A DNA stretch of 42,765 nucleotides, from the IMG/VR virus record IMGVR_UViG_3300017788_000057, positions 1 through 42,765 of that record; one strand, 5' to 3'. Shown here one piece after another: positions 1-18,806 of this stretch. The number at the start of each line of letters is the position of its first letter. Within the stretch, counting starts at the first letter, position 1. A program made the position numbers and the translations under genes. The notes below the pieces were generated by a model, which saw only the letters and a list, made by a program, of their open reading frames with translations, did no database searches and was not told where the DNA came from. The DNA is from a virus.

Positions 1-173
1 GAACCCCTAAATCGCCTTTATCTTTTGTGTGGTGTCGCATATTTTTAGTATGCGACCGTAAGATTAGGCGTCTATCGGTTTCCTCGGGATTGCCATCACC
101 GTTACGTGGAAGGTTTCCCCGATATAGTGCTGTCCACTTTAAGAATTTTTATTCTTCTTAAAGGCTCCTATTG
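1..173 (-). ncRNA. Group I intron (IC3-like), 3' end outside the window
   Basis: All four conserved core elements are visible on the minus strand: P (GGGGAAACC, about 112-120), Q (AATCCCGAGG, about 82-91), R (about 56-73, with CGCCT) and S (AAGATAAAGGCG, about 12-26, whose AGGCG pairs with the R element to form P7). The 5' part carries an internal guide GAG that can pair with exon C32 U33 and form the expected G-U with U34, followed by a P2 hairpin around 130-165. No endonuclease ORF is present. The P-Q block is nearly identical to that of the intron at 1890-2174, so the two share a recent origin. Confidence 0.85.
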
Positions 174-208
174 AAGGCAAGGGCTCTATCCAGCTGAGCT
201 ACAGACAC
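1..208 (-). tRNA. 5' part of an intron-split tRNA, UNN anticodon (partial)
   Basis: The minus strand from 208 reads a good tRNA 5' half: a seven-base acceptor strand, TA, a GCTC/GAGC D arm with an AGCTGGATA loop, anticodon-stem strand CTTGC, then C32 U33 U34 at 174. A group I intron starts at 173 and runs off the window, so positions 35-76 are not visible and the amino acid cannot be read. The D arm and loop start resemble tRNA-Arg(UCU), but that is only a guess. The intron site after U34 matches the two complete split tRNAs nearby. Confidence 0.8.
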
Positions 209-214
209 TACTTG

Positions 215-337
215 TCACATTGTCATCACTACGAAACGGATGCAGCCTTGCGCCAGTACGTAAATCACAGTCGCGATCGTAGCTGCGGCAAGCGTATCCT
301 GAAGAAGGTCTTTCACGAATTGATGCTGTTTTCTCAT
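215..337 (-). CDS. Small single-pass membrane protein (40 aa), tentative
   Basis: An ATG ORF of 40 codons sits exactly between two tRNA genes (209-349). It begins MRKQHQFVKDLLQD and continues as a hydrophobic stretch (about residues 16-39, containing ATIATVIYVLAQ and IRFVVM), so the product would be a short N-in membrane peptide. No clear Shine-Dalgarno sequence is visible upstream. Position and amphipathic-then-hydrophobic layout favour a real gene. The short length and missing ribosome site argue against. No function is proposed. Confidence 0.4.
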   Translation of the reverse strand: MRKQHQFVKDLLQDTLAAATIATVIYVLAQGCIRFVVMTM

Positions 338-349
338 AGTGAGTAGAGG

Positions 350-426
350 TGGTCCGCCTGCTCCGACTCGAACGGAGAACCTTCACCTTATAAGAGTGCT
401 GCGCTGACCTATTGCGCTACAGGCGG
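350..426 (-). tRNA. tRNA-Ile(UAU), CCA encoded
   Basis: Minus-strand cloverleaf: acceptor CCGCCTG/CAGGCGG, D arm GCGC...GCGC, anticodon loop CTTATAA (anticodon TAT), T arm CTCCG-TTCGAGT-CGGAG, discriminator A and an encoded CCA (350-352). The anticodon stem has a T-G and an outer G-A mismatch. It would read AUA codons. UAU is a rare way to decode AUA in bacteria, which normally use lysidine-modified CAU. Confidence 0.85.
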
Positions 427-437
427 GCCGAGGTCGC

Positions 438-492
438 GTAACTGTAGTCGCGCACTCTGCACAGCGCGCCTTTCGACGCGCAAGACTACAGT
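438..492. repeat. Inverted repeat, possible structured RNA or terminator
   Basis: ACTGTAGTC (438-446) and GACTACAGT (484-492) are perfect complements. The interior is GC-rich, with GCGC-type arms that can fold further. The element lies immediately downstream of the minus-strand gene ending at 500 and before tRNA-Ile, so it may be a transcript end or a processing hairpin. There is no strong U-tract. Confidence 0.4.
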
Positions 493-499
493 AGTTAGG

Positions 500-892
500 T
501 TATTTAGCCGCTCTTTCGGCTAAAGTCTTTTTGAGCAGTTCCGCGGATGCGGCAGCGTCCGCTTCAAGCTGCTTTACCCTATCGTAAGCCGGCCGGTCTT
601 CCACAGGTAGCTCCCACCGCGACACAGGTGCGCGGGGGTGCTCAATCGCCCTGTATGTGGGTTTGGTCACATCTACGCGACAGCCCGGTAACACAAACAG
701 TGCAACAACCGTCGTCACAAACAGTCCCCTAAGTACCTGTTTCATAGGGAATCTCTGCGGTGTGTGTGTCGAGGTTGAGCGCCACCACGGTACGCCATAT
801 ACCACTACCCATGTATACCAGAAGTAGACCAGCCCAAGGGTCAACCCCATTTTCATGACGTTGACAATGATCAACAAGAACTCATTTGCCAT
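500..892 (-). CDS. Membrane protein with internal lipobox (130 aa)
   Basis: The ORF starts at an ATG overlapping the end of the SPFH gene by 11 bases, so the two are probably co-translated. Residues about 4-34 form a very hydrophobic segment rich in aromatic residues. A second hydrophobic segment (about 53-70) ends in a lipobox L-P-G-C (Cys71) and is preceded by an in-frame Met50 (start 745). The C-terminal 30 residues are a charged Ala/Glu/Lys helix. Two readings are possible: one two-span membrane protein, or an upstream membrane peptide plus an internally started lipoprotein (M50-C71 is a plausible lipoprotein signal). The second resembles outer-spanin layout, but no Rz partner was found. 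Function unknown. Confidence 0.65.
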   Translation of the reverse strand: MANEFLLIIVNVMKMGLTLGLVYFWYTWVVVYGVPWWRSTSTHTPQRFPMKQVLRGLFVTTVVALFVLPGCRVDVTKPTYRAIEHPRAPVSRWELPVEDRPAYDRVKQLEADAAASAELLKKTLAERAAK

Positions 893-1790
893 TGTTCACT
901 GCCGCATTTAGCGTGGGAAGTAAGATTGCCGGGTTAGAGAGCGCCTCGTACGGCAAGAAAATCACGTTGTTGTTAGAGGCTGCCAAGCCTTCTAGTACGC
1001 GCAAACCGCGTTGGATAACAAACGCTTGCGTTACTTTTGAGGCAAGGATCTCTTCGACACGCGCCTGCGTCTCTGCCTCTAGGAGGTCAATCTCTTGTTG
1101 ACGGCGTGCCACCTCCAGCTTTGCGCCAGCTTGTGTCAACGCAATCGCTTTCTCGGACTCCGCCTTCTCGATAGCGATCTCACGCTCCTTTGCAGCTTCT
1201 TGTGCTCTAACGATGACATCCGGCGGTTGTACGTCGGACAACCCGAAATTGAACACACGGATCGGCGTGTGGCTGAGTTCTTCCGAAATTACCGTTGCCA
1301 TTTCTTGTGAAACGGCTGCGCGATTGGTCAGAACTTCGAGGATTGTGTATCGCGCCAGCGTCTCTCTTGCACGCTGGCGGATGATTGGTTGCGCATATGT
1401 TGCATACACGTGATCGATTGAGATCTGTTTGATTCGACTGTCCTCCGTCGGCGTGTGCGTCAAGCGGCTGAACATGTCCGCAATGACCGCCTCATCCACC
1501 GGAATCGTGGCGGTAAATCGGAGGTCGAAGGTCAGATTGAGACGGTCTTTTGGCATGTAAACGGTCATGTCGACCTCTTCATACGTCTCGTCCGACGTCT
1601 GCGCCAAAATCAAATACGACTTGGCTTCCCACGGCATCACCACAGGTAACCGGAAACTGGATGGAGTCTTGATTCCGTTCTCTAGACCCGTGGGGCCTAG
1701 CACCTTTCCGACAAAACCAGTCGGAATTTCTACGCGCGCGCCACAGCTGGCGAGCAGCATCGCGATACAAGTAATGAGGACGTTTCGCAC
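882..1790 (-). CDS. SPFH/band 7 (prohibitin-like) lipoprotein
   Basis: A 302-residue protein with a lipoprotein signal (lipobox L13-A-S-C16). A band 7/SPFH domain spans about 20-200, followed by a long Ala/Glu/Lys/Arg coiled coil (about 195-255) and a hydrophobic C-terminus with VIFLPYEALSNPAILLP, typical of prohibitin/HflC-type proteins. Family members form ring or cage oligomers on membranes and scaffold proteases such as FtsH. Here the anchor is predicted to be a lipid rather than an N-terminal helix. The start is GTG at 1790, with an A/C-rich leader and no visible Shine-Dalgarno. The neighbour at 500-892 is a small membrane protein that may act with it. A role in superinfection exclusion or membrane remodelling is only inference. 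Confidence 0.85.
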   Translation of the reverse strand: MRNVLITCIAMLLASCGARVEIPTGFVGKVLGPTGLENGIKTPSSFRLPVVMPWEAKSYLILAQTSDETYEEVDMTVYMPKDRLNLTFDLRFTATIPVDEAVIADMFSRLTHTPTEDSRIKQISIDHVYATYAQPIIRQRARETLARYTILEVLTNRAAVSQEMATVISEELSHTPIRVFNFGLSDVQPPDVIVRAQEAAKEREIAIEKAESEKAIALTQAGAKLEVARRQQEIDLLEAETQARVEEILASKVTQAFVIQRGLRVLEGLAASNNNVIFLPYEALSNPAILLPTLNAAVNNGK

Positions 1791-1813
1791 TTTGTGTTGT
1801 TGTTGTTGTGAAT

Positions 1814-1843
1814 AACACCCGCTGTCACGTGACAGCGGGTGTT
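1814..1843. terminator. 30-base perfect palindrome, likely terminator
   Basis: AACACCCGCTGTCAC is followed directly by its reverse complement. It lies between the 3' end of tRNA-Thr (1848) and the start of the SPFH gene (1790), both on the minus strand, so it would end tRNA transcription. There is only a short T stretch (TGTTATT). A symmetrical protein-binding operator is the alternative. Confidence 0.55.
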
Positions 1844-1847
1844 TGGA

Positions 1848-2207
1848 TGGAGCCGGGGGTGGGGCTTGAACCCACGACCTGCTGATTACCTGCCCACGTG
1901 AACTTTCGTTCGAGACTACACTAGGTGTAACTGTGTGGGTTGGACTTTCTCTTTACCCTCGTCTTCACGTTAGGGTACGCCGTGTAAAGTCTCTACACTT
2001 GCCCAGGCTTTTTAGCCTTGCTAGCTCGGGATTGCCATCACCATCACGTGGAAGGTTTCCCCGACTTAGCGGCGTTCAAACTACAGGTTTCTCTGTAGCC
2101 GTCCGTAATTTTTTTATGATTTATACCTGCCTACACGTCGAACTAGGTATAAACAAGATAAATCATACTAGTACAAATCAGCTGCTCTACCACTAAGCTA
2201 CCCCGGC
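1848..2207 (-). tRNA. tRNA-Thr(UGU), split by a group I intron, CCA encoded
   Basis: The 5' exon 2175-2207 has acceptor GCCGGGG, D arm GCTT-AGTGGTA-GAGC, stem GCTGA and loop bases TTT. The 3' exon 1848-1889 begins GTAA, then stem TCAGC, T arm GTGGG-TTCAAGC-CCCAC, acceptor CCCCGGC, base U73 and CCA. Joining after U34 gives a seven-base loop TTTGTAA with anticodon TGT (Thr). All stems pair perfectly across the join, which proves that the two halves belong together. Confidence 0.92.
1890..2174 (-). ncRNA. Group I intron (IC3-like) in tRNA-Thr, 285 nt
   Basis: Core elements on the minus strand: P GGGGAAACC (about 2054-2062), Q AATCCCGAGC (about 2024-2033), R GTAGAGACTTTACACGGC (about 1979-1999), S AAAGAGAAAGTCC (about 1941-1956). 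The P8 and J8/7 region closely resembles, from memory, the Anabaena tRNA-Leu(UAA) intron. The last intron base is G (omega-G, 1890) and the 3' domain has a GAAC-GAAA-GTTC hairpin. The P1 loop holds an extra hairpin (ATGATTTAT/ATAAATCAT). No ORF is encoded. The internal guide is less clear than in the other two introns. Confidence 0.92.
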
Positions 2208-2212
2208 AAAGG

Positions 2213-2289
2213 TGGTAGCGGGGGCCGGATTCGAACCGACGACCTTCAGCTTATGAGGCTGACGAGCTACCAAACTGCTCTACCCCGCG
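2213..2289 (-). tRNA. Initiator-like tRNA-fMet(CAU), CCA encoded
   Basis: A 77-base cloverleaf with anticodon loop CTCATAA. Three initiator hallmarks are visible: no Watson-Crick pair at 1-72 (C1 against U72), A11-U24 in the D stem, and an acceptor and T arm nearly identical to bacterial tRNA-fMet. The anticodon stem is TCAGC/GCTGA, so the usual three consecutive G-C pairs (29-31/39-41) are not kept. CCA is encoded at 2213-2215. Confidence 0.85.
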
Positions 2290-2375
2290 TACCCGAAGAA
2301 ATTGAAGAAACTAAGCAAAGAACGAGTGACCATATTTTTTCCGATAACGATCGCTCAGCGGCTTAGTTGAGTTAA
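2290..2375. other. tRNA spacer with a long-range inverted repeat
   Basis: No ORF is seen. AACTAAGC near 2306 and GCTTAGTT near 2361 are complementary and could close a loop of about 45 bases between two tRNAs. It may help tRNA processing, but nothing else is recognised. Confidence 0.3.
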
Positions 2376-2449
2376 TGGAACGGATAGTGGGATTCGAACC
2401 CACACAGCCGCGGTGGAAACGCGGCATTCTACCATTAAATTATATCCGC
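2376..2449 (-). tRNA. tRNA-Gly(UCC), CCA encoded
   Basis: A cloverleaf with acceptor GCGGATA/TATCCGT, D loop AATGGTAGA, anticodon stem CCGCG/CGCGG around loop TTTCCAC (anticodon TCC), T arm GTGGG-TTCGAAT-CCCAC, U73 and CCA (2376-2378). The discriminator U fits tRNA-Gly. It reads mainly GGA/GGG, whereas the glycine-rich genes nearby use mostly GGC and GGT. Confidence 0.93.
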
Positions 2450-2454
2450 AAAAA

Positions 2455-2540
2455 CCTAGGCTGCGTCCCGAGTCTTCCTTTCTTTTTTTTATTAAGTAGG
2501 TAAGATTCAAAAAATGCGGTCCCAGCGCGTGCAGCCTAGG
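2455..2540. repeat. Perfect 10-bp inverted repeat closing an 86-base element
   Basis: CCTAGGCTGC (2455-2464) and GCAGCCTAGG (2531-2540) pair perfectly and enclose a T-rich stretch (a run of T near 2480-2490). The inner bases next to the stem (GCGTCCCGAG, GCGGTCCCAGCGC) do not make a tRNA cloverleaf. It may be a structured small RNA, a decayed tRNA or a terminator between tRNA-Gly and the gene at 2550. Confidence 0.4.
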
Positions 2541-2549
2541 TGAACTGCA

Positions 2550-2855
2550 TCAGGACTCTTTGTTGATGACCCATGCCGGTAGTGCGTCCAGACGCGCCTC
2601 CGCTTCGGGCGTCACCTCTTGCACCTCGTGAACGCCGATCACCTTGACGTCTGTAGGTGTACACAGCCGCGTGAACCCTGGATCCAGCTTACCGTATGTG
2701 GCAACTTCGGACAATTCCGCAGCGCCTCCCCAGCGGTACAACCGGCGCGCGTTACGCATTTGTACGATGTAGCCGGCGGGGGTTGCTTCCTCGCGGATAA
2801 TCTGACCGTACCAAACTCCGGATCCTGTTGAACGAACAATGTGTTTGAAAGTCAT
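2550..2855 (-). CDS. Conserved small phage protein (101 aa)
   Basis: A compact 101-residue protein without signal or membrane segments. The middle reads NARRLYRWGGAAELSEVATY followed by a Gly-Lys-Leu-Pro-Gly-type turn. This pattern of an Asn-Ala-Arg-Arg start, a Trp, and a Leu-Ser-Glu-Val-Ala helix is reminiscent of small phage/prophage DUF6948-type proteins, a recognition from memory only. The C-terminus is acidic. It follows the glycine-rich array on the same strand and may be its last co-transcribed gene. No Shine-Dalgarno is visible before the ATG. Function unknown. Confidence 0.65.
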   Translation of the reverse strand: MTFKHIVRSTGSGVWYGQIIREEATPAGYIVQMRNARRLYRWGGAAELSEVATYGKLDPGFTRLCTPTDVKVIGVHEVQEVTPEAEARLDALPAWVINKES

Positions 2856-2933
2856 TTGAGTCTGTATTTGAATTTATGTTTTAGTCTGCGTCTGTGTAGA
2901 CTGTCTTACCGAATGTGTTTTTTTGCTTCGCAC

Positions 2934-3215
2934 TTACCTGCCGCCGCGGCCGTCGCCGATACCTTCACCATCGTCTTCGCCGTAGCCGTCGCCGCGACCG
3001 TGACCGTCGCCGTAACCGGCGCAGCGGCCGGTACCAGTACCGAGGCCATCGCCGCCACCGCGACCGTAGCCATCGCTGTAGCCGTAACCGTGACCGGAGC
3101 TATCGCCGTGCCCGTAGCCGTCGCCTTCGCCGGCACCGTCGCCGAAGCCGTAGACATCGCCGCCACCGGAACCGCTACCGAAGCCGTAACGTTCTTTTTT
3201 ATCTTCTTGTTCCAT
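2934..3215 (-). CDS. Gly/Tyr/Asp-rich low-complexity protein, copy 6 (93 aa)
   Basis: Last of six tandem paralogues. The N-terminus MEQEDKKERYG closely matches copy 1 (MEQEDKEEHYG). The rest is imperfect GYG/GDG/GHG repeats with acidic residues, ending RGDGYGEDDGEGIG-DGRGGR. No catalytic motif is present. The real frame is the minus one: the plus-strand frames are Arg- or Ala-rich by-products of the repeat. Function unknown; such sequences are expected to be disordered or to make glycine-loop assemblies. Confidence 0.8.
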   Translation of the reverse strand: MEQEDKKERYGFGSGSGGGDVYGFGDGAGEGDGYGHGDSSGHGYGYSDGYGRGGGDGLGTGTGRCAGYGDGHGRGDGYGEDDGEGIGDGRGGR

Positions 3216-3220
3216 GGTTT

Positions 3221-3502
3221 TTAACCAGCACCGGAGCTGGGACCATCGCCGTAGCCGTAGCCCTCGCCGTCGCCATCGCCGCTACCGGAACCGCGGCCGT
3301 AGCCGTAGCCGTAGCCGTAGCCGTGGCCGATGCCGTCGCCGAAGCCGTAGCTGTGACCGGAACCGCGGCCGTGACCGGAACCGCGGCCGTCACCACAGCC
3401 CTCGTCGCTACCTTCGCCATAGCCGTGACCATAGCCGTCGCCGCGACCGTCGCTTTCGCCAGCGCCGTCGCCGTAATGTTGCGCCTTGGTTTCTTGGTCC
3501 AT
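3221..3502 (-). CDS. Gly/Tyr/Asp-rich low-complexity protein, copy 5 (93 aa)
   Basis: The start was chosen at ATG 3502 because MDQETKAQHYG matches the N-termini of the other copies; the open frame continues upstream as Ala/Thr-rich read-through of the neighbour in another frame. The body is GYG/GDG/GSG repeats with a GYGYGYGYG run. GAAGG lies a short distance before the start and is also the end of the preceding copy. Unknown function. Confidence 0.8.
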   Translation of the reverse strand: MDQETKAQHYGDGAGESDGRGDGYGHGYGEGSDEGCGDGRGSGHGRGSGHSYGFGDGIGHGYGYGYGYGRGSGSGDGDGEGYGYGDGPSSGAG

Positions 3503-3506
3503 GGTT

Positions 3507-3746
3507 CTAGCCTTCGTCTTCACTGTCACCGTAGCCGTCACCATAGCATTCGCCGTGACCGGTACCATCGCCGGAGCCGGTACATACGCCTTTGCCGTCG
3601 CCGCAGCCGCACACGAAACCGAGGCTTCCGCCGTAGCCGTCGCCGCCACCGAGGCCGAAGCCTCCGCCGTAGCCGTAGCCGGAGCCGAAGCCGCCACCGG
3701 AACCGCTGCCGGAGCCGTAGCACTCTTCTTTGTTTTTCTGGTCCAT
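3507..3746 (-). CDS. Gly/Tyr/Asp-rich low-complexity protein, copy 4 (79 aa)
   Basis: The start at ATG 3746 gives MDQKNKEECYG. The body is Gly/Ser/Tyr-rich and differs from the other copies by several cysteines (C9, and VCGCGDGKGVC in the middle), so it could bind metal or form disulfides. It ends SEDEG, like other copies. Four bases separate its stop from copy 5. Confidence 0.8.
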   Translation of the reverse strand: MDQKNKEECYGSGSGSGGGFGSGYGYGGGFGLGGGDGYGGSLGFVCGCGDGKGVCTGSGDGTGHGECYGDGYGDSEDEG

Positions 3747-3753
3747 GATTTTC

Positions 3754-4041
3754 TTAATCTTCGTCGTGACCATAACCCCTGCCGGAACCGTCGCCAGCGC
3801 CGTGGCCGTAGCCGCAGCTGTTGCAGTCGTAGCTACCGTCACCACGACCATGGTTACTGCCGAAGCCGTAGCCATAGCCGACGCCGTCACCGTAGCCGTA
3901 GCCGTGACCTTCGCCGTAGCCGCGACCGGAGCCTTCGCTGTAGTCTTCGCCGTAGCCGTGGCCGTAGCCGTTGCCTCCGCCGTCGCCGTCACCGTCAGCG
4001 AAGCCGCAGCCGTAGTGCCGCATGTTGATTAATCCGTCCAT
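3754..4041 (-). CDS. Gly/Tyr/Asp-rich low-complexity protein, copy 3 (95 aa)
   Basis: ATG at 4041 gives MDGLINMRHYG; a second Met at 4023 (MRHYG) is possible. The N-terminus is the most divergent of the family but keeps HYG. GYG/GDG repeats follow, with YDCNSCGYG (two cysteines) near residue 75 and a GHDED end. Unknown function. Confidence 0.78.
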   Translation of the reverse strand: MDGLINMRHYGCGFADGDGDGGGNGYGHGYGEDYSEGSGRGYGEGHGYGYGDGVGYGYGFGSNHGRGDGSYDCNSCGYGHGAGDGSGRGYGHDED

Positions 4042-4046
4042 AGTTT

Positions 4047-4316
4047 TTAGATGTGACCATGGTCGTAGCCGTAACCGTCGCCGTCGCCGTCGCCGTTGCC
4101 GATACCACACCCGTTGCTGTACCAGCCACCAGCACCGTAACCAGCACCATCGCCAGTACCTTTACCAGCTCCGGCGCCGGAGCTGTCGCCGCGGCCATAG
4201 CCTTGGCCGTCGCCGTTACCGTAGCCATCGCCGAAGCCGAGGCCGTAGCCTTGGCCGTAGCCTTCGCCGACGCCGCAACTGGCACCGTAATGCTGCACCT
4301 TAGTTTCTTGATCCAT
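4047..4316 (-). CDS. Gly/Tyr/Asp-rich low-complexity protein, copy 2 (89 aa)
   Basis: ATG at 4316 gives MDQETKVQHYG, almost identical to copy 5. Repeats of GYGxGYG and GDGxG follow, with a Trp-Tyr-Ser-Asn-Gly-Cys break at about residue 67. The leader CGAAGGCTAGAACT includes the previous copy's stop codon and a possible ribosome site GAAGG. Confidence 0.8.
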   Translation of the reverse strand: MDQETKVQHYGASCGVGEGYGQGYGLGFGDGYGNGDGQGYGRGDSSGAGAGKGTGDGAGYGAGGWYSNGCGIGNGDGDGDGYGYDHGHI

Positions 4317-4320
4317 AGTT

Positions 4321-4398
4321 CTAGCCTTCGTCGCAGTCGTTACCGGAGCCGTCGCCGTCGCCACAACCGTAGTGCTCTTCTTTATCTTCTTGTTCCAT
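4321..4398 (-). CDS. Gly-rich low-complexity protein, copy 1, short (25 aa)
   Basis: A 25-codon ORF whose N-terminus MEQEDKEEHYG matches copy 6 and whose end NDCDEG matches the family C-terminus. It is a copy that has kept both ends and lost most repeats, as expected from recombination inside the repeat. Its leader again contains GAAGGCTA. Confidence 0.7.
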   Translation of the reverse strand: MEQEDKEEHYGCGDGDGSGNDCDEG

Positions 4399-4428
4399 GA
4401 TTTTTAGCCTTCGGCGTCGAAGGAGGAA

Positions 4429-4516
4429 AGGAGAAGGTGGGATTCGAACCCACGGCGCTTGTTTAGAGCGCGCTTGTTTTCAAGACAAGAGCAATAACCC
4501 ACTCTGCCACTTCTCC
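4429..4516 (-). tRNA. tRNA-Ser(UGA)
   Basis: An 88-base class II cloverleaf: acceptor GGAGAAG/CTTCTCC, anticodon stem CTTGT/ACAAG around CTTGAAA (anticodon TGA), long variable arm, T arm GTGGG-TTCGAAT-CCCAC. The discriminator would be U and no CCA is encoded; serine tRNAs normally have G73. Confidence 0.88.
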
Positions 4517-4520
4517 GTAA

Positions 4521-4594
4521 TGAGCCTGGGGGGATTCGAACCCCACACTGTTAAGATCCTAAGTCTTATGCCTCTACCGTTGGGCTACAGGCTC
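4521..4594 (-). tRNA. tRNA with UAG anticodon, nominally Leu, short variable arm
   Basis: A cloverleaf with acceptor GAGCCTG/CAGGCTC, D arm GCC/GGC, anticodon stem TAAGA/TCTTA around CTTAGGA (anticodon TAG, reading CUA) and T loop TTCGAAT. The discriminator is A and there is no CCA. Bacterial tRNA-Leu has a long variable arm, but this one has only about five or six bases, so the charging identity is uncertain. It is not an amber suppressor, which would need anticodon CUA. Confidence 0.8.
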
Positions 4595-4651
4595 GTGTAT
4601 GGTGACCCCTGCCGGATTCGAACCGGCACGCTGTTTAAGGCTGCAGATTTT

Positions 4652-5032
4652 CTTACCACTATAGCTTTCGCTACTACCCATACTTTAATAGTTGACATAC
4701 TCCCCACGACTAAAGCCGGGGGATTCTTGGATTCAAACAGGGATTGCTTGACCGAAGCCAAGTCTGACATCCCCTAGCCCATCGCGTTGATGCCCCAACG
4801 CTTGAATATTCAAAGCAGCAGTAAAGGTATTTGTGGTCTGGACTGTCTCTTTACCTTTTGCATGTTACTGCAGTCAGGTAGCTACCGTACAGTCTCTACA
4901 CTTCCAATTTTCTTATGGCGCTTACCGCAAGAAAAAAGTTTAGCTCGGGATTGCCATTGTTTTACAACAGAAGGTTTCCCCGAATTTGATAGCATTCGCT
5001 AAAGGATTTCGCCTTTAGTGCTCAAATTGTCA
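4652..5032 (-). ncRNA. Group I intron (IC3-like) in tRNA-Leu(UAA), 381 nt
   Basis: Core on the minus strand: guide GAG near 5021, P GGGGAAACC (about 4973-4981), Q AATCCCGAGC (about 4943-4952), R GTGTAGAGACTGTACGG (about 4885-4902), S AAAGAGACAGTCC (about 4841-4853), omega-G at 4652, and a P9-type hairpin TAGTAGCGAAAGCTAT just before the 3' splice site. It is about 100 nt longer than the tRNA-Thr intron. The extra length lies between S and the terminal P9 hairpin and contains the IS605-like sequence at about 4691-4800. Confidence 0.93.
4691..4800 (-). mobile_element. IS200/IS605-type right end / omega-RNA-like remnant in the intron
   Basis: On the minus strand this insertion ends GAATCCCCCGGCTTTAGTCG followed by TGGGGAGTATGTCAAC (4691-4726). 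A GAATCCC lead, a hairpin with a TTTA loop and an end GGGGAGTATGTCAA is the typical right end of TnpB-encoding IS200/IS605 elements, which is also the 3' end of their omega RNA (recognition from memory). Upstream GC-rich sequence to about 4800 may be more of the scaffold. There is no tnpB or tnpA in the window, so it is a remnant or a non-autonomous element. The exact outer border is not defined. Confidence 0.65.
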
Positions 5033-5076
5033 AAGTCTGCTGTGTCTACCGATTCCACCAAGGGGCCGTGTAGGGG

Positions 5077-5168
5077 TGGTGGGAGTGAAAGGATTCGAAC
5101 CTTTATTGTTAACCCTGAGGGACCAGATTTACAGTCTTGCGCAACACCGCCGTCGTTGCCGCACTCCC
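5077..5168 (-). tRNA. tRNA-Tyr(GUA), CCA encoded
   Basis: A class II cloverleaf: acceptor GGGAGTG/CACTCCC, anticodon loop CTGTAAA (anticodon GTA), long variable arm CCCT-CAGGG, T arm AAAGG-TTCGAAT-CCTTT, A73 and CCA at 5077-5079. The anticodon stem has one A-G mismatch. Confidence 0.9.
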
Positions 5169-5173
5169 GTGGT

Positions 5174-5244
5174 CGGTGTGCTGGGACTTGAACCCAGGCC
5201 ATACGGATTAAAAATCCGCTACTCTACCAACTGAGTTACACACC
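5174..5244 (-). tRNA. tRNA-Lys(UUU)
   Basis: A cloverleaf with acceptor GGTGTGT/GCACACC, D arm ACTC-AGTTGGTA-GAGT, anticodon stem GCGGA/TCCGT around TTTTTAA (anticodon TTT) and T arm CTGGG-TTCAAGT-CCCAG. The discriminator is G and CCA is not encoded. Its 5' end overlaps the last codons of the gene at 5236-5433. Confidence 0.9.
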
Positions 5245-5433
5245 GTTTTTTCTTCGTCGGCGACGCTTGTCCGCCTCTTGGTGCTCGGCCCACCATCGCT
5301 TTAGTATCGGCGTATCAATGTACGTGGGTACAAGTTCTGGATGATCCCGCAGCACATCACAGAGTGCGGCCGCCGCCGCCATGTTCTCGTAAGTACCTTC
5401 AGGCGGTCGATTATCGTCTTCGCGACAAGGCAT
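5236..5433 (-). CDS. Small hypothetical protein (65 aa)
   Basis: The ORF is open further upstream, but ATG 5433 (MPCREDDNRPPEGTYENM) is the better start because the upstream part is low-quality coding sequence overlapping hairpins. The body is a helical Ala/Leu-rich segment with PELVPTY and LKRWWAEH, and the end is a basic RRRRRK tail overlapping tRNA-Lys by nine bases. The basic end suggests nucleic-acid contact. No family was recognised. Confidence 0.55.
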   Translation of the reverse strand: MPCREDDNRPPEGTYENMAAAAALCDVLRDHPELVPTYIDTPILKRWWAEHQEADKRRRRRKNGV

Positions 5434-15076: not shown

Positions 15077-15110
15077 TGATCACGGCGTGTTGTAATCACT
15101 AAGGGGCGTG

Positions 15111-18100
15111 ATGTTAGACAAGTATATTCAATTAGGCGGAGGCGATGCTTGGGGACCGGATTACGTACCTATTCATCAACATACGCTTACGAAGATCGCA
15201 TCGAGTTGTTATACTCCGACGTCGTTAATGGACGTGATGGGTAAACTAGTACCGCGACCAGAAGGTCGTTATGTCTTACTAAACGCGCTCGGCGCCCACG
15301 AGTATTGGGGCTGTTTTACAGCAGGGACACTTATAAGCTCGGAGTACGGCGATGTTCCCATCGAGACGCTTAAGCCTGGAGATAATGTACTAACACATAA
15401 AGGTCGTTACAGACCAATTGTTAATACTCAGGTATACGGCAATAAGAGAACCAAACTCATAATCAAAGTAGAAGGTTTATCTGATTCTATTCATGTCACT
15501 CCGGAACATCCGTTCTTAGTAATGACTTCTGATCTGACCTGTAGAAGAGATAAATATAAACGCTGTACTACTATATCGCAAGGCGAGCAGAGTATATGTA
15601 AAAGATATGCTGGTTGCGCTGTGGCTGATGAAAAATTAGAGTTTATACGAGAATGGCGAAATGCTGGAGAATTAGTAAAAGGCGATTTCTTAGCTATCCC
15701 TAAGGATGTTTTTATTGAAAAAGCGCGGATGACCGAAGCAGAGGCCAATTTATTCGGGCTGTTCTTAGCGGAAGGAAATTTTGAAAAATATACTAAAACT
15801 AAAGAAAAAGTAGGTATTCGCCTCAGTTTCAATGAGAACGAAACTCCCACACTAGTCGCAAACGCAGTCAAGTGCGCAGAATCACTTGGCTTAGAGGGGC
15901 GTGTGTATCACCACAAATCCGGAACACAAGTTTGTGTGGTTATTAAATCAAGAGAATTAGCTGCAAAATTCTATTCTTGGAGTGGAGAGTATGCCGCACA
16001 CAAACAGATGCCAAGATGGTTGTTTAATCAGCCTATAAATATTCAACATGCTGTATTGGCTGGTCTATTTGATGGAGATGCTCATTACAATAAAACTACT
16101 GATGTGGTTGTACTACGATTAGCCTCTAAGCAGCTGATATTGGATGTACAGCGGATGTTGCGGAATTGGGGTATAGCGTCTTGCTATCAAGCAAATAATT
16201 GGAGCAAAGAGCATCCAGATATCCTATATCACCAAGTAAGTTTTCCTACTTGGAAACTTCCTGATCTTACTAAATATTCGTCATCTAAATACTATAAAAC
16301 AACACCGCAGCACAAGAAAACACGATCATTTGGTGATGATGAATATTTCTATGTACCTATCAGAAATATTGAAAAATACGAATCAGACGATCTCGTTTAT
16401 AATTTCGAAGTAGAAGAAGATCACTCTTACATAGCCGGCGGCGTGGCCGTGCATAATTGTAACATGAACGGGGACGCGTTCCCTGAATGGAGTCTTAAAG
16501 GCGACCAGCCGCCGAAGTCTGTCCAAGACATCGTCGAGCTTAAAGTCAAACCTAAAATCCCTGATTTCGTCATACCGCACGGGAACTACGGTCATTCGAC
16601 CTTTGTCTCAAACGCGAAGGTATACGTAGGGCACGCAAACACAGATCCCACGAGAAGTATCGGCGACGTTATTGCGTCGGCATATAACGATAAGATGCAT
16701 CGTGTAGAGCTTATCGTTTTTGTATACACGGATCGCAACCCAGAGCTGGTACAAAAAATCGATGCGAATGAGCCGGTACCGTTTTCGATGGGTGCGAAGC
16801 TTCGGTTCGACGTGTGCCTACTCCCTGGCGCCCTTGTAGCAACGCCGAATGGACCTAAAACAATCGAATCTCTGACGGCAGGCGATTTAGTTTTCACACA
16901 ACAAGGCAACACTCAAGAAGTAATCCAGACGTTCGTGACGCCCGGAATACATAATGTACGCAAAATCAAAATAGGTGGTATAGGCGATGATTTACAGATC
17001 ACAGATAATCACCCTGTGTATGTGTTGAAGGCCGAACATGTGCGAGGATGTGCAGGTACAGTCGGCCGCGGCATGGTCCGTAGGCATAGTTTCTCGGGAA
17101 ATGTCTGTAAAAAGTGCGGGATTACTGCCGACGAACTAGCTGGTAAGGCTGCATTTATCAGAGCAGATGACATAGACGTAGGCGATTACGTCTTGTCGCC
17201 GGCGGTGGCGTCTTCTGCAAATGAGGCAATAGACGAATCGCTTGCTTATGTCGCGGGACTTTATCTTGGCGACGGTAGTCTTATATTTAGTACTAGCAAA
17301 AGGCACGGTCGGCGAGCCGTAGGCGTTTCTATTTGCTGTCAAGATGATCTTATCTATGTAGAGCACGTCAAACAGGCTCTAACCAAAGTATCTGATTCGC
17401 CGGTCAATGTTTATGCGGCAGGATCCGATAGAAAGGCTTGGGTCGTACAGACGCACGACAACGCACTTGCGGCGTATCTTCACGGAGCCTGCGGCGTCAA
17501 AAAATCTAAAAAAATACCGGCCCAGATCTGGGCCAGTGGCTTAGAGGCGAGAAAGGCTCTATTGGCTGGTCTGGTTGACAGTGACGGATCAGTGGATCCA
17601 AGGAGGCTGACTACTCGGTTCAGTAACACACTCCCAGCACTGATCCAAGGCGTACAACTACTGGCGACTAGCTGCGGATATGCGAGCACGTATCACTGGC
17701 GCACCTTTACGCAAAGCACGTACAGCGGCGAGGGCGTGTACGCGACAGTGAGCCTCGGGACAGCCTTTACCGCTGACACAAAAGAGCTGAGTTTTAAATG
17801 TGGTAAACACACTACCGTCCCTAGGTGGTCGAATAAAGTATTACAGCTACCGAGACAGAACTGGTTCCCGGTCGAGACTATCGAAGAGGGCGTGTATGAG
17901 GGAGATGTCTACAACATTGCCGTAGAAGCCGATGAAACCTATTTAGTGAATAACGTCGCTGTTCACAACTGTTCGATTTGTCTCAACATCGCGCGCACAC
18001 GCGCAGAGTATTGCGAACACCTGTCCGCCATGCTTCGGCAGACGCTACCGGACGGTCGCCGTGTGTACTCTTATAACTTCTTCCCGCGGTTCTTTGATAT

Positions 18101-18806
18101 CTCATATGTACGTGTCCCGGCAGACCGAAGCGCCTGGGCTTTGAAAAAAGTAGCCGCACTTCCGCAAGCGCTCATACCGACGCACAGACTGACCGACAAG
18201 CTCGCCGAGCTTGTGAAGAAAGAACTGGGTAGTGGCGAAACGCTCGGGTCAACGCCCGTGAATCCAAAGCTCGTCCGGCTTATGACAAGCCGGGTCGTGG
18301 ATGATTACTCTGAGCGGCCGGAGGATCCGGAAATACTGCGCCTAATAGCTCGCTGTAAGATAGAGAAAGCGCTTGCTTCATTAACGGCGATGGGTGTTAT
18401 ATTAAAGCCTCAAGAAGTCGTTAAACTATCTAGTAGATATCCTGCGTTATTCTCACGTTCTTTCTCGCTTAACGACATCGACCCTATGATTGTCCGCGCA
18501 GCAGACGATATCGTTAAGCGAACAACTACACACAACCCTTATCTTATGAAACGGGCGGAAGCTCGTAGCGTGGTTAAGGGTCCACTAGATACAGATAGTG
18601 CGGCGTTTACGCAATATCGGGAGTATCTAAAATCAATTGATTTTAACAAACTAGCGGCGTGGTTGACTACGTCCCCTGTAGCACAGTTAACTCTACAGAT
18701 GGACAATTTCTTATACAAAGTGGCCGGTATAGACACACAACAAACCGGCATCCCCTTATGTCTACCTACAGCCTGTCTAGTCTACTACCTAAATTCGACA
18801 AACTAA
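15111..18806 (+). CDS. Prohead protease-like protein, precursor with two inteins
   Basis: The ATG at 15111 is preferred to GTG 15108 because AAGGGG is better spaced. The precursor has 1231 residues; removing two inteins (68-449 and 569-953) leaves 464. The middle extein (450-568) has NMNGDAFPEW, then VGHAN (His508) with DPTRSIGDVIASAYN, MHRVELIVF, and PFSMGAKLRFDV (Ser559). His and Ser in this order fit an assemblin-type (HK97/T4 gp21-like) maturation protease. The C-extein begins CSICLNIARTRAEYCEHL, a Cys-rich motif of a known phage protein family. Its C-terminal part is helical with KKVAA and YKVAG motifs. It is followed by small acidic proteins and the capsid gene, as expected. Protease activity is inferred. 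Confidence 0.75.
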   Translation: MLDKYIQLGGGDAWGPDYVPIHQHTLTKIASSCYTPTSLMDVMGKLVPRPEGRYVLLNALGAHEYWGCFTAGTLISSEYGDVPIETLKPGDNVLTHKGRYRPIVNTQVYGNKRTKLIIKVEGLSDSIHVTPEHPFLVMTSDLTCRRDKYKRCTTISQGEQSICKRYAGCAVADEKLEFIREWRNAGELVKGDFLAIPKDVFIEKARMTEAEANLFGLFLAEGNFEKYTKTKEKVGIRLSFNENETPTLVANAVKCAESLGLEGRVYHHKSGTQVCVVIKSRELAAKFYSWSGEYAAHKQMPRWLFNQPINIQHAVLAGLFDGDAHYNKTTDVVVLRLASKQLILDVQRMLRNWGIASCYQANNWSKEHPDILYHQVSFPTWKLPDLTKYSSSKYYKTTPQHKKTRSFGDDEYFYVPIRNIEKYESDDLVYNFEVEEDHSYIAGGVAVHNCNMNGDAFPEWSLKGDQPPKSVQDIVELKVKPKIPDFVIPHGNYGHSTFVSNAKVYVGHANTDPTRSIGDVIASAYNDKMHRVELIVFVYTDRNPELVQKIDANEPVPFSMGAKLRFDVCLLPGALVATPNGPKTIESLTAGDLVFTQQGNTQEVIQTFVTPGIHNVRKIKIGGIGDDLQITDNHPVYVLKAEHVRGCAGTVGRGMVRRHSFSGNVCKKCGITADELAGKAAFIRADDIDVGDYVLSPAVASSANEAIDESLAYVAGLYLGDGSLIFSTSKRHGRRAVGVSICCQDDLIYVEHVKQALTKVSDSPVNVYAAGSDRKAWVVQTHDNALAAYLHGACGVKKSKKIPAQIWASGLEARKALLAGLVDSDGSVDPRRLTTRFSNTLPALIQGVQLLATSCGYASTYHWRTFTQSTYSGEGVYATVSLGTAFTADTKELSFKCGKHTTVPRWSNKVLQLPRQNWFPVETIEEGVYEGDVYNIAVEADETYLVNNVAVHNCSICLNIARTRAEYCEHLSAMLRQTLPDGRRVYSYNFFPRFFDISYVRVPADRSAWALKKVAALPQALIPTHRLTDKLAELVKKELGSGETLGSTPVNPKLVRLMTSRVVDDYSERPEDPEILRLIARCKIEKALASLTAMGVILKPQEVVKLSSRYPALFSRSFSLNDIDPMIVRAADDIVKRTTTHNPYLMKRAEARSVVKGPLDTDSAAFTQYREYLKSIDFNKLAAWLTTSPVAQLTLQMDNFLYKVAGIDTQQTGIPLCLPTACLVYYLNSTN
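15312..16457 (+). mobile_element. Intein 1 (382 aa) with LAGLIDADG homing endonuclease
   Basis: Starts with Cys1 (CFTAGTLISSEYGDVPIETL, block A), block B SIHVTPEHPFLVM, two LAGLIDADG motifs (LFGLFLAEG and LAGLFDGDA), block F NIEKYESDDLVYNFEVEEDH and block G YIAGGVAVHN. The next extein residue is Cys, so class 1 splicing looks complete. It is inserted before CNMNGDAF. Its sequence is visibly more AT-rich than the exteins, a sign of recent arrival. Confidence 0.93.
16815..17969 (+). mobile_element. Intein 2 (385 aa) with LAGLIDADG homing endonuclease
   Basis: Starts with Cys1 (CLLPGALVATPNGPKTIESL), block B ITDNHPVYVL, LAGLIDADG motifs YVAGLYLGDG and LLAGLVDSDG, block F VYEGDVYNIAVEADETY and block G LVNNVAVHN. 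The +1 residue is Cys of CSICLN. An insert with CxxCG near 17107-17121 looks like part of a zinc site. Base composition is closer to the phage than in intein 1, and the two are only distantly alike, so they entered separately. Confidence 0.93.

What the first reader, a model, noticed from the sequence alone, without database searches (positions are those of the whole stretch)
1..5067. Three cyanobacterial-type group I introns in three different phage tRNA genes
Complete or nearly complete group I cores are seen in tRNA-Leu(UAA), tRNA-Thr(UGU) and a third UNN tRNA, all inserted after U34. The P-Q block is almost identical in the first two copies (1-173 and 1890-2174), and the S/J8-7 part of the Thr copy recalls the Anabaena tRNA-Leu intron. 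Introns of this kind are known in tRNA-Leu, but spread to a tRNA-Thr and another tRNA inside one phage suggests movement within the phage tRNA array.
Basis: partly seen in the sequence, partly recalled or inferred. Interest (0 to 1): 0.87.

Follow-up and report, generated by a model that had tools for sequence, protein, structure and literature searches.

The report
Phage tRNA intron carrying transposon guide-RNA
A phage's tRNA genes are interrupted by self-splicing introns, and one of those introns carries, in a harmless-looking loop, the intact guide-RNA end of a bacterial transposon without the nuclease gene that normally goes with it, a combination I did not find in any related phage or in the papers searched.

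Summary
The core observation holds. On the minus strand, tRNA-Leu(UAA) (4600-5067) and tRNA-Thr(UGU) (1848-2207) each contain a complete group I intron after U34. A third 5' half (174-208, probably tRNA-Arg(UCU)) is followed by the first 173 nt of an intron that runs off the record. 'Three complete' is therefore too strong.

Introns of this kind are not peculiar to this phage. One pattern scan found 72 viral contigs with the same tRNA-Leu intron 3' end, several with HNH homing endonuclease genes. Published phages have them too (Agrobacterium Atu_ph07; Klebsiella Muenster, tRNA-Met). The Leu copy groups with Leu introns of other phages. Thr and the third share only a near-identical 40-nt P4-P5 block. 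Spread inside this tRNA array is at best partly supported.

The Leu intron holds 129 nt (4692-4820) of an IS200/IS605 tnpB 3' end with a structurally intact omegaRNA and an IS608-type right end, in the P9a hairpin tip behind TTTAC. All 26 scaffold pairs hold, 6-12 of them changed on both sides relative to any relative. No tnpB is present. This resembles a minimal IStron but is built from a different intron and lacks the transposase and a left end.

The parts
5033..5067 (-). tRNA-Leu(UAA) 5' exon, ends at U34
   Evidence: ARAGORN -i
4652..5032 (-). 381-nt group I intron of tRNA-Leu(UAA). P1 strand near 5020-5026, P2 4999-5018, P3 4988-4993/4881-4886, P4-P5 4944-4984, P7 4889-4894/4841-4846, P8 4852-4880, P9 4833-4838 with 4655-4659, P9b 4661-4675, terminal G at 4652
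   Evidence: RF00028 63 bits; ARAGORN; motif coordinates
4692..4820 (-). 129-nt insert in the P9a hairpin tip: last codons of an IS200/IS605 tnpB plus omegaRNA scaffold and IS608-type right end (GAAT - hairpin - TCAA)
   Evidence: blastn to tnpB 3' ends; pair analysis; IS608 end features from PMC5934647
4784..4801 (-). omegaRNA helix H1, GCGTTG GGGCAT CAACGC
4739..4775 (-). omegaRNA helix H2 (AGGGGAT/ATCCCT) enclosing hairpin H3 (4747-4762, CTTGGC TTCG GTCAAG)
4692..4726 (-). right end: GAAT, hairpin H4, GGGGAGTATGTCAA
4676..4691 (-). would-be guide (16 nt), CTATTAAAGTATGGGT, which is intron P9a sequence
   Evidence: position directly 3' of TCAA; only this place in the window within 3 mismatches of the 18-nt guide
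4821..4831 (-). left flank AATACCTTTAC with TTTAC, IS608 target-like, at the junction
4600..4651 (-). tRNA-Leu(UAA) 3' exon with CCA
   Evidence: ARAGORN
2175..2207 (-). tRNA-Thr(UGU) 5' exon
   Evidence: ARAGORN
1890..2174 (-). 285-nt group I intron of tRNA-Thr(UGU). P1 2172-2177/2102-2107, P3 2070-2075/1977-1982, P4-P5 2025-2065, P7 1986-1991/1943-1948, P8 1954-1977, P9 1935-1939/1893-1897
   Evidence: RF00028 42.4 bits E 1.6e-8; ARAGORN
1848..1889 (-). tRNA-Thr(UGU) 3' exon with CCA
   Evidence: ARAGORN
174..208 (-). 5' half of a third tRNA, probably Arg(UCU), ending at U34
   Evidence: sequence; no 3' half on the record
1..173 (-). 5' part of a third group I intron, cut by the record start: P1 165-173, P2 137-163, P4-P5 82-123, extended P6
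   Evidence: 95% over 40 nt to the Thr copy; not found by Rfam or family profile

Best explanation
Two complete group I introns, and the first part of a third, interrupt tRNA genes of this phage after U34. They should self-splice by the usual two steps: G attack at the U.G pair in P1, then use of the terminal G in P7. Inside the Leu intron an IS200/IS605 element of the IS608 kind inserted at a TTTAC in the tip of the P9a hairpin, outside the catalytic core. It then lost its left end, any tnpA and nearly all of tnpB. What remains is the right end and a complete omegaRNA scaffold, followed by intron sequence where a guide would be. Because the insert sits in a peripheral loop and P9 can still close around it, splicing should continue, and the excised intron would contain the whole omegaRNA plus its guide. 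Most likely it is a tolerated passenger that could still be used by a TnpB supplied in trans. Shown by sequence: introns, exons, insert identity, pairing, absence of tnpB on the record. Inferred: splicing, transcription as guide RNA, any use in trans.
For: Introns: Rfam and ARAGORN. Insert identity: blastn matches of 73-78% over 103-111 nt to the 3' ends of annotated tnpB genes and a solo copy. Pairing: 26 of 26 hand-parsed pairs are standard in the insert, with 6-12 pairs changed on both sides relative to each of 14 relatives; over 19 pairs and 15 sequences 283 of 285 cells pair, against 210 +/- 5 in shuffles (maximum 228). Right end GAAT-hairpin-TCAA and insertion 3' to TTAC are the published IS608 features (PMC5934647). 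Empty sites: in the phage Leu introns where this segment could be read, the same place holds a short hairpin or an unrelated longer sequence, never an omegaRNA. L101, nearest in the core tree, has CTATGTTTACTAAATATGG there and folds as P9 + P9a + P9b, and a constructed insert-free version of the window's segment also closes P9 and P9b. No tnpB on the record.
Against: One contig only; no second phage with the insert was found, so a rare or recent event or an assembly fault cannot be excluded, although both intron flanks and both tRNA halves fit. The left boundary is uncertain: TTTAC could belong to the intron target or to the tnpB codons before the NAALNI-like motif. The helix parse was made by hand and the insert's parse was chosen to pair. 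Free folding of the insert alone does not give these helices and its z-score is only -1.17. No RNA data.
Confidence: 0.8

Rival explanations
1. RNA-guided homing: the omegaRNA in the Leu intron is kept by selection and, with a TnpB supplied by the host or a co-infecting element, directs cutting of tRNA-Leu introns that lack the insert, so that the insert (and intron) is copied into rival phages. It would replace the HNH homing endonuclease that other phages carry in the same intron family.
For: Scaffold intact with changes on both sides of pairs. The guide position reads the intron's own P9a sequence behind a TTTAC that would serve as the motif next to the target; donor-joint cutting of this kind is described for ISDra2 TnpB (PMC8612924). 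Related phage Leu introns carry HNH genes at other places.
Against: No TnpB on the record. The 18-nt guide is not found in any other intron of the viral collection; its three viral hits lie outside tRNA/intron context and are probably chance. No second copy.
Confidence: 0.15
2. A dead relic: the insert is the decaying tail of a transposon with no remaining role, structurally intact only because it arrived recently.
For: Left end, tnpA and about 350 codons of tnpB are missing; single occurrence. An intact structure can be inherited from the donor element and does not prove selection here.
Against: None of the 26 pairs is broken, and the right end is complete, so decay has not begun in the part that matters.
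Confidence: 0.5
3. Assembly chimera: the contig joins a phage intron to a host transposon end.
For: The record is a metagenome contig of one sample; omegaRNA ends are repeated in many genomes and can cause misjoins.
Against: Both sides of the insert are parts of one intron (P9 strands pair, P9b and the 3' exon match the tRNA-Leu 5' exon) and ARAGORN accepts the whole as one gene. A chimera would need two misjoins.
Confidence: 0.04

Closest known systems
Group I introns in tRNA-Leu(UAA) and other tRNA genes of bacteria and plastids (Anabaena, Azoarcus, Agrobacterium tRNA introns)
   Same: Insertion in the anticodon loop, compact core with P1-P9, terminal G; after U34 as in tRNA-Leu (own knowledge for the bacterial cases)
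   Different: Here in a phage, in tRNA-Thr(UGU) and probably tRNA-Arg as well, and one copy carries a transposon guide-RNA end
[quoted passage not shown] Agrobacterium phage Atu_ph07)
   Same: Same exon, same splice point and a nearly constant 3' end AGCGAAAGCTATAGTGGTNNGAAAATC
   Different: Others have a short P9a hairpin or other sequence there, sometimes with an HNH gene elsewhere in the intron; none has an omegaRNA
IStrons (CdISt1, BcISt1, CbISt elements)
   Same: Group I intron combined with an IS200/IS605-type end, insert near P9, spliced out with the intron; ORF-less forms are known (PMC4227781)
   Different: Known IStrons use IA2 introns with the IS part downstream of P9.2, move as whole elements into many genes, and were found only in Firmicutes and Fusobacteria and phages of Clostridium botulinum. 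Here the intron is a tRNA intron in its family's usual exon, the insert is in P9a, and there is no ORF or left end
IS608 / IS200-IS605 elements with TnpB and omegaRNA
   Same: Right end GAAT-hairpin-TCAA, target TTAC, tnpB 3' end overlapping the omegaRNA (PMC5934647)
   Different: No left end, no tnpA, no tnpB beyond the last codons

Membership tests
Group I intron (Leu and Thr copies) | Core helices P3, P4-P6, P7, P8 in order, P1 with U.G at the 5' splice site, terminal G | tested here: met
   RF00028 full-length matches; helices and ends located; the Thr copy is below the curated cut-off (42.4 of 50 bits)
Group I intron (third copy) | P7, P8 and 3' splice site | not testable with these tools
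   The record starts inside the intron; only P1, P2, P4-P5 and part of P6 are present
Group I intron | Exons join to a proper tRNA | tested here: met
   ARAGORN builds tRNA-Leu(UAA) and tRNA-Thr(UGU) with full stems from the halves
Group I intron | Self-splicing activity | not tested
   Needs RNA work
Cyanobacterial tRNA-intron lineage | Closest relatives in cyanobacterial tRNA genes | tested here: inconclusive
   No cyanobacterial tRNA intron could be fetched; the nearest found are phage introns
omegaRNA of IS200/IS605 TnpB | Conserved scaffold with covarying helices ending at TCAA next to the guide | tested here: met
omegaRNA of IS200/IS605 TnpB | Works with a TnpB | not tested
   No TnpB on the record
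IS608-type transposon | Left end (TTAC followed by AAAG and a subterminal hairpin) and tnpA | tested here: not met
   TTTAC is followed directly by tnpB-like sequence; AAAG as left guide from PMC5934647
IStron | Group I intron fused with an IS element as one mobile unit with IS at both ends | tested here: not met
   No left end and no transposase; the intron sits in the exon normal for its family
IStron | IA2 intron with IS part downstream of P9.2 | tested here: not met
   Insert is in the P9a hairpin tip between P9 and P9b; site of IStrons from PMC4227781. The intron subclass itself was not assigned here

The most novel reading that the evidence does not exclude
A phage tRNA intron has exchanged a protein homing endonuclease for a guide RNA. 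The omegaRNA in its P9a loop survives splicing inside the excised intron and directs a TnpB provided in trans to intron alleles lacking it, giving RNA-guided intron homing between phages. In IStrons, as I recall from recent work not held in this library, splicing and guide-RNA formation exclude each other; here they need not.
Probability: 0.13. Interest if true: 0.9.

Novelty: new variant of a known kind. Interest (0 to 1): 0.6.

Why it matters
Phage group I introns are described as sitting mostly in protein genes (PMC3984707, PMC4227781). The searches here show that tRNA-Leu(UAA) introns are common in phages, sometimes with HNH genes, and that further tRNAs (Thr, Met, probably Arg) are hit. 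The omegaRNA-bearing copy is a natural test of how a transposon guide RNA can live inside a self-splicing intron without harming it, and of whether IStron-like unions arose more than once and outside Firmicutes and Fusobacteria.

Tried and rejected
(1) A miniature element with both IS ends: rejected, no AAAG-plus-hairpin left end. (2) Other copies of the combination: DNA patterns joining an omegaRNA end to the intron 3' part gave nothing in viral contigs or genome contigs; a search of 48 whole viral records gave only one weak, unrelated hit. (3) tnpB in the phage or its relatives: none on the record; two large intron-bearing phages (L099, L114 records) hold distant tnpB genes (29-34%); their relation to the introns was not examined. 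(4) Guide targets: 18-nt guide found in three viral contigs; two of these show the same region with a 21-nt match, the third an unrelated gene; no intron context, taken as chance. (5) Relatives of this phage by terminase (69% identity at best) have no tRNA array or intron in the records held. (6) Minimum-energy folding of the insert does not show the covarying helices, so the comparative parse was used; the alignment A3 is sequence-based and misaligns hairpin H3, so pairs were counted from a hand parse. (7) Rfam's weak full-length HgcC match to the insert (19.3 bits, E 0.33) is below any usable level. (8) Regex-based core extraction for the tree lost about a third of the introns; the tree is only a rough guide.
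Full report
The window is the whole of a 42,765-base IMG/VR virus record. All features below are on the minus strand, in an array of tRNA genes at 170-5250.

Check of the observation. With introns allowed it adds tRNA-Thr(UGU), c[1848,2207], intron 285 nt, and tRNA-Leu(UAA), c[4600,5067], intron 381 nt, both cut after U34. Rfam's group I model covers both in full length, 63 bits for Leu and 42.4 bits (E 1.6e-8) for Thr. Reading the two introns gives, for Leu, P2 4999-5018, P3 GCUAUC/GGUAGC, P7 GACUGU/ACAGUC, P8 UACCU/AGGUA and P9 ACCAC/GUGGU; for Thr, P1 UUUGUA/UACGGA with U.G at the splice site, P3 ACGCCG/CGGCGU, P7 GACUUU/AAAGUC, P8 UACCCU/AGGGUA and P9 CCCAC/GUGGG; both have AAGAGA as J8/7 and end in G. 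The P3 and P7 helices differ between the two while staying paired, which chance would not give.

The third copy. A tRNA 5' half at 174-208 is followed by 173 nt that start like the others (C-A-A-U-A-G-G-A-G, a perfect P2 hairpin at 137-163, P4-P5 at 82-123), after which the record ends. Neither Rfam at E<=1 nor a profile built from 60 phage introns finds it. Its P4-P5 block is 95% identical over 40 nt to the Thr copy (E 3e-13) and 85-88% to Klebsiella phage tRNA-Met introns. I accept it as the 5' part of a group I intron with fair confidence. Its tRNA is probably Arg(UCU), from the 5' half alone.

Are these introns special to this phage? No. The 3' end of the Leu intron is nearly constant, and a 27-base pattern for it hit 72 viral contigs. 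ARAGORN finds tRNA-Leu(UAA) with an intron in 58 cases counted (most 178-213 nt), and several of the rest are miscalled Leu genes or truncated. Longer ones carry HNH endonuclease-like genes within the intron (L058, L061, L078, L101, L114, plus L093); Pfam HNH_3 matches two of the three that were scanned, one of them below the curated cut-off, and not L101's. Published phages have such introns too: Agrobacterium phage Atu_ph07 in tRNA-Leu, Klebsiella phages Muenster and OU509535 in tRNA-Met. I found no paper in the library that reports this family; reviews place phage group I introns mainly in protein genes (PMC3984707; PMC4227781). L105 has near-identical introns in a CAU tRNA and in tRNA-Leu, so such introns can move between tRNA genes of one phage.

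Relations of the three copies. In a rough tree of cores the Leu copy pairs with L101, a Leu intron (support 0.94), and the Thr copy falls with L058 and the Klebsiella Met introns with little support.

The insert. In the Leu intron 129 nt (4820-4692) separate P9's 5' strand from P9b. They match the 3' ends of tnpB genes at 73-78% over 103-111 nt (Chroococcidiopsis, Trichormus, Geoalkalibacter, a solo copy in an Aphanizomenonaceae plasmid). In frame they read TAALNIQALGHQRDGLGDVRLGFGQAIPV-stop, a TnpB C-terminus. They end in GAATCCCCCGGCTTTAGTCGTGGGGAGTATGTCAA. IS608 has GAAT and TCAA as right guide and cleavage site and inserts 3' to TTAC (PMC5934647). The base after TCAA is C, the base IS608 prefers after TTAC.

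Structure of the insert. Fourteen homologous tnpB ends were collected and aligned. Four helices can be drawn in all. In the phage insert 26 of 26 pairs are standard, and against each relative 6-12 pairs differ on both sides and 0-4 on one side only. For 19 pairs over 15 sequences 283 of 285 cells pair; shuffling partners gives 210 +/- 5, maximum 228. The helices were chosen by hand, which favours pairing, and shuffles do not keep relatedness, but the margin is wide. The insert is thus an intact omegaRNA scaffold. This does not by itself prove selection in the phage, since the donor element had the same structure.

Place and empty site. In the other phage Leu introns where it could be read, the segment between GACCACAAA and GGTAGCGAAAGC is usually a short hairpin; in a few it is longer, but it is not an omegaRNA in any. 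L101 has CTATGTTTACTAAATATGG, with TTTAC in the loop, and folds as P9, P9a, P9b. The window reads AATACCTTTAC-[insert]-CTATTAAAGTATGGG. So the insertion lies in the P9a tip behind TTTAC. No left end (AAAG and hairpin) follows TTTAC, so the element is truncated at its left side. Whether TTTAC is the old target or part of tnpB cannot be settled.

No tnpB is on the record, and the related viral records examined contain no omegaRNA like it.

How it works. The likely reading is two (probably three) ordinary self-splicing tRNA introns, one of which tolerates a transposon remnant in a peripheral loop. The whole omegaRNA and its 16-nt guide lie upstream of the 3' splice site, so splicing would not cut the guide RNA, unlike what I recall for IStrons. 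Whether any TnpB uses it is unknown. The guide reads the intron itself, so with a TnpB in trans the target would be the same intron without the insert; no such allele was found. I give active RNA-guided homing 13-15%.

Comparison. It works like a group I intron and is one (Leu, Thr). The insert is an omegaRNA by structure. It is not an IStron by the tested features: different insertion place, no left end, no ORF. Survey of IStrons: PMC4227781.

Noticed in passing
L051-L122 (72 viral contigs); L021 (Agrobacterium phage Atu_ph07): A large family of group I introns in phage tRNA-Leu(UAA) genes with a nearly constant 3' end, several with HNH genes in the intron, some of them on the opposite strand (L078, L101).
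   Followed up: partly
L018 1420-1721; L019 about 1416-1722: Klebsiella jumbo phages have a group I intron in tRNA-Met(CAU); in the annotated Muenster record the gene is not annotated.
   Followed up: partly
L105 108-385 and 3219-3497: Two near-identical group I introns in a CAU tRNA and in tRNA-Leu(UAA) of one contig, evidence of movement between tRNA genes in a phage.
   Followed up: no
window 2930-4400 minus: Between the tRNA genes lie about five tandem paralogous small reading frames made of Gly-Tyr/Asp-rich repeats, several beginning MDQE-K..YG; no Pfam match for the one tested.
   Followed up: no
window 15108-18806 plus: One 1232-aa frame holds two inteins with LAGLIDADG-type endonuclease domains.
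   Followed up: no
window 882-1790 minus: A Band 7/SPFH-domain protein encoded inside the phage tRNA array.
   Followed up: no
L114 record (G047), 392,823 bases: A very large phage with a HEG-bearing tRNA-Leu intron also carries four tnpB genes elsewhere.
   Followed up: no
L069, L072, L097, L114 P9a segments: Some phage Leu introns have 50-110 nt of other sequence in the P9a tip, so this loop tolerates inserts.
   Followed up: no
L020 record (Vibrio phage 11895-B1): Five matches to the group I intron model in one 126-kb phage, three above the curated cut-off.
   Followed up: no
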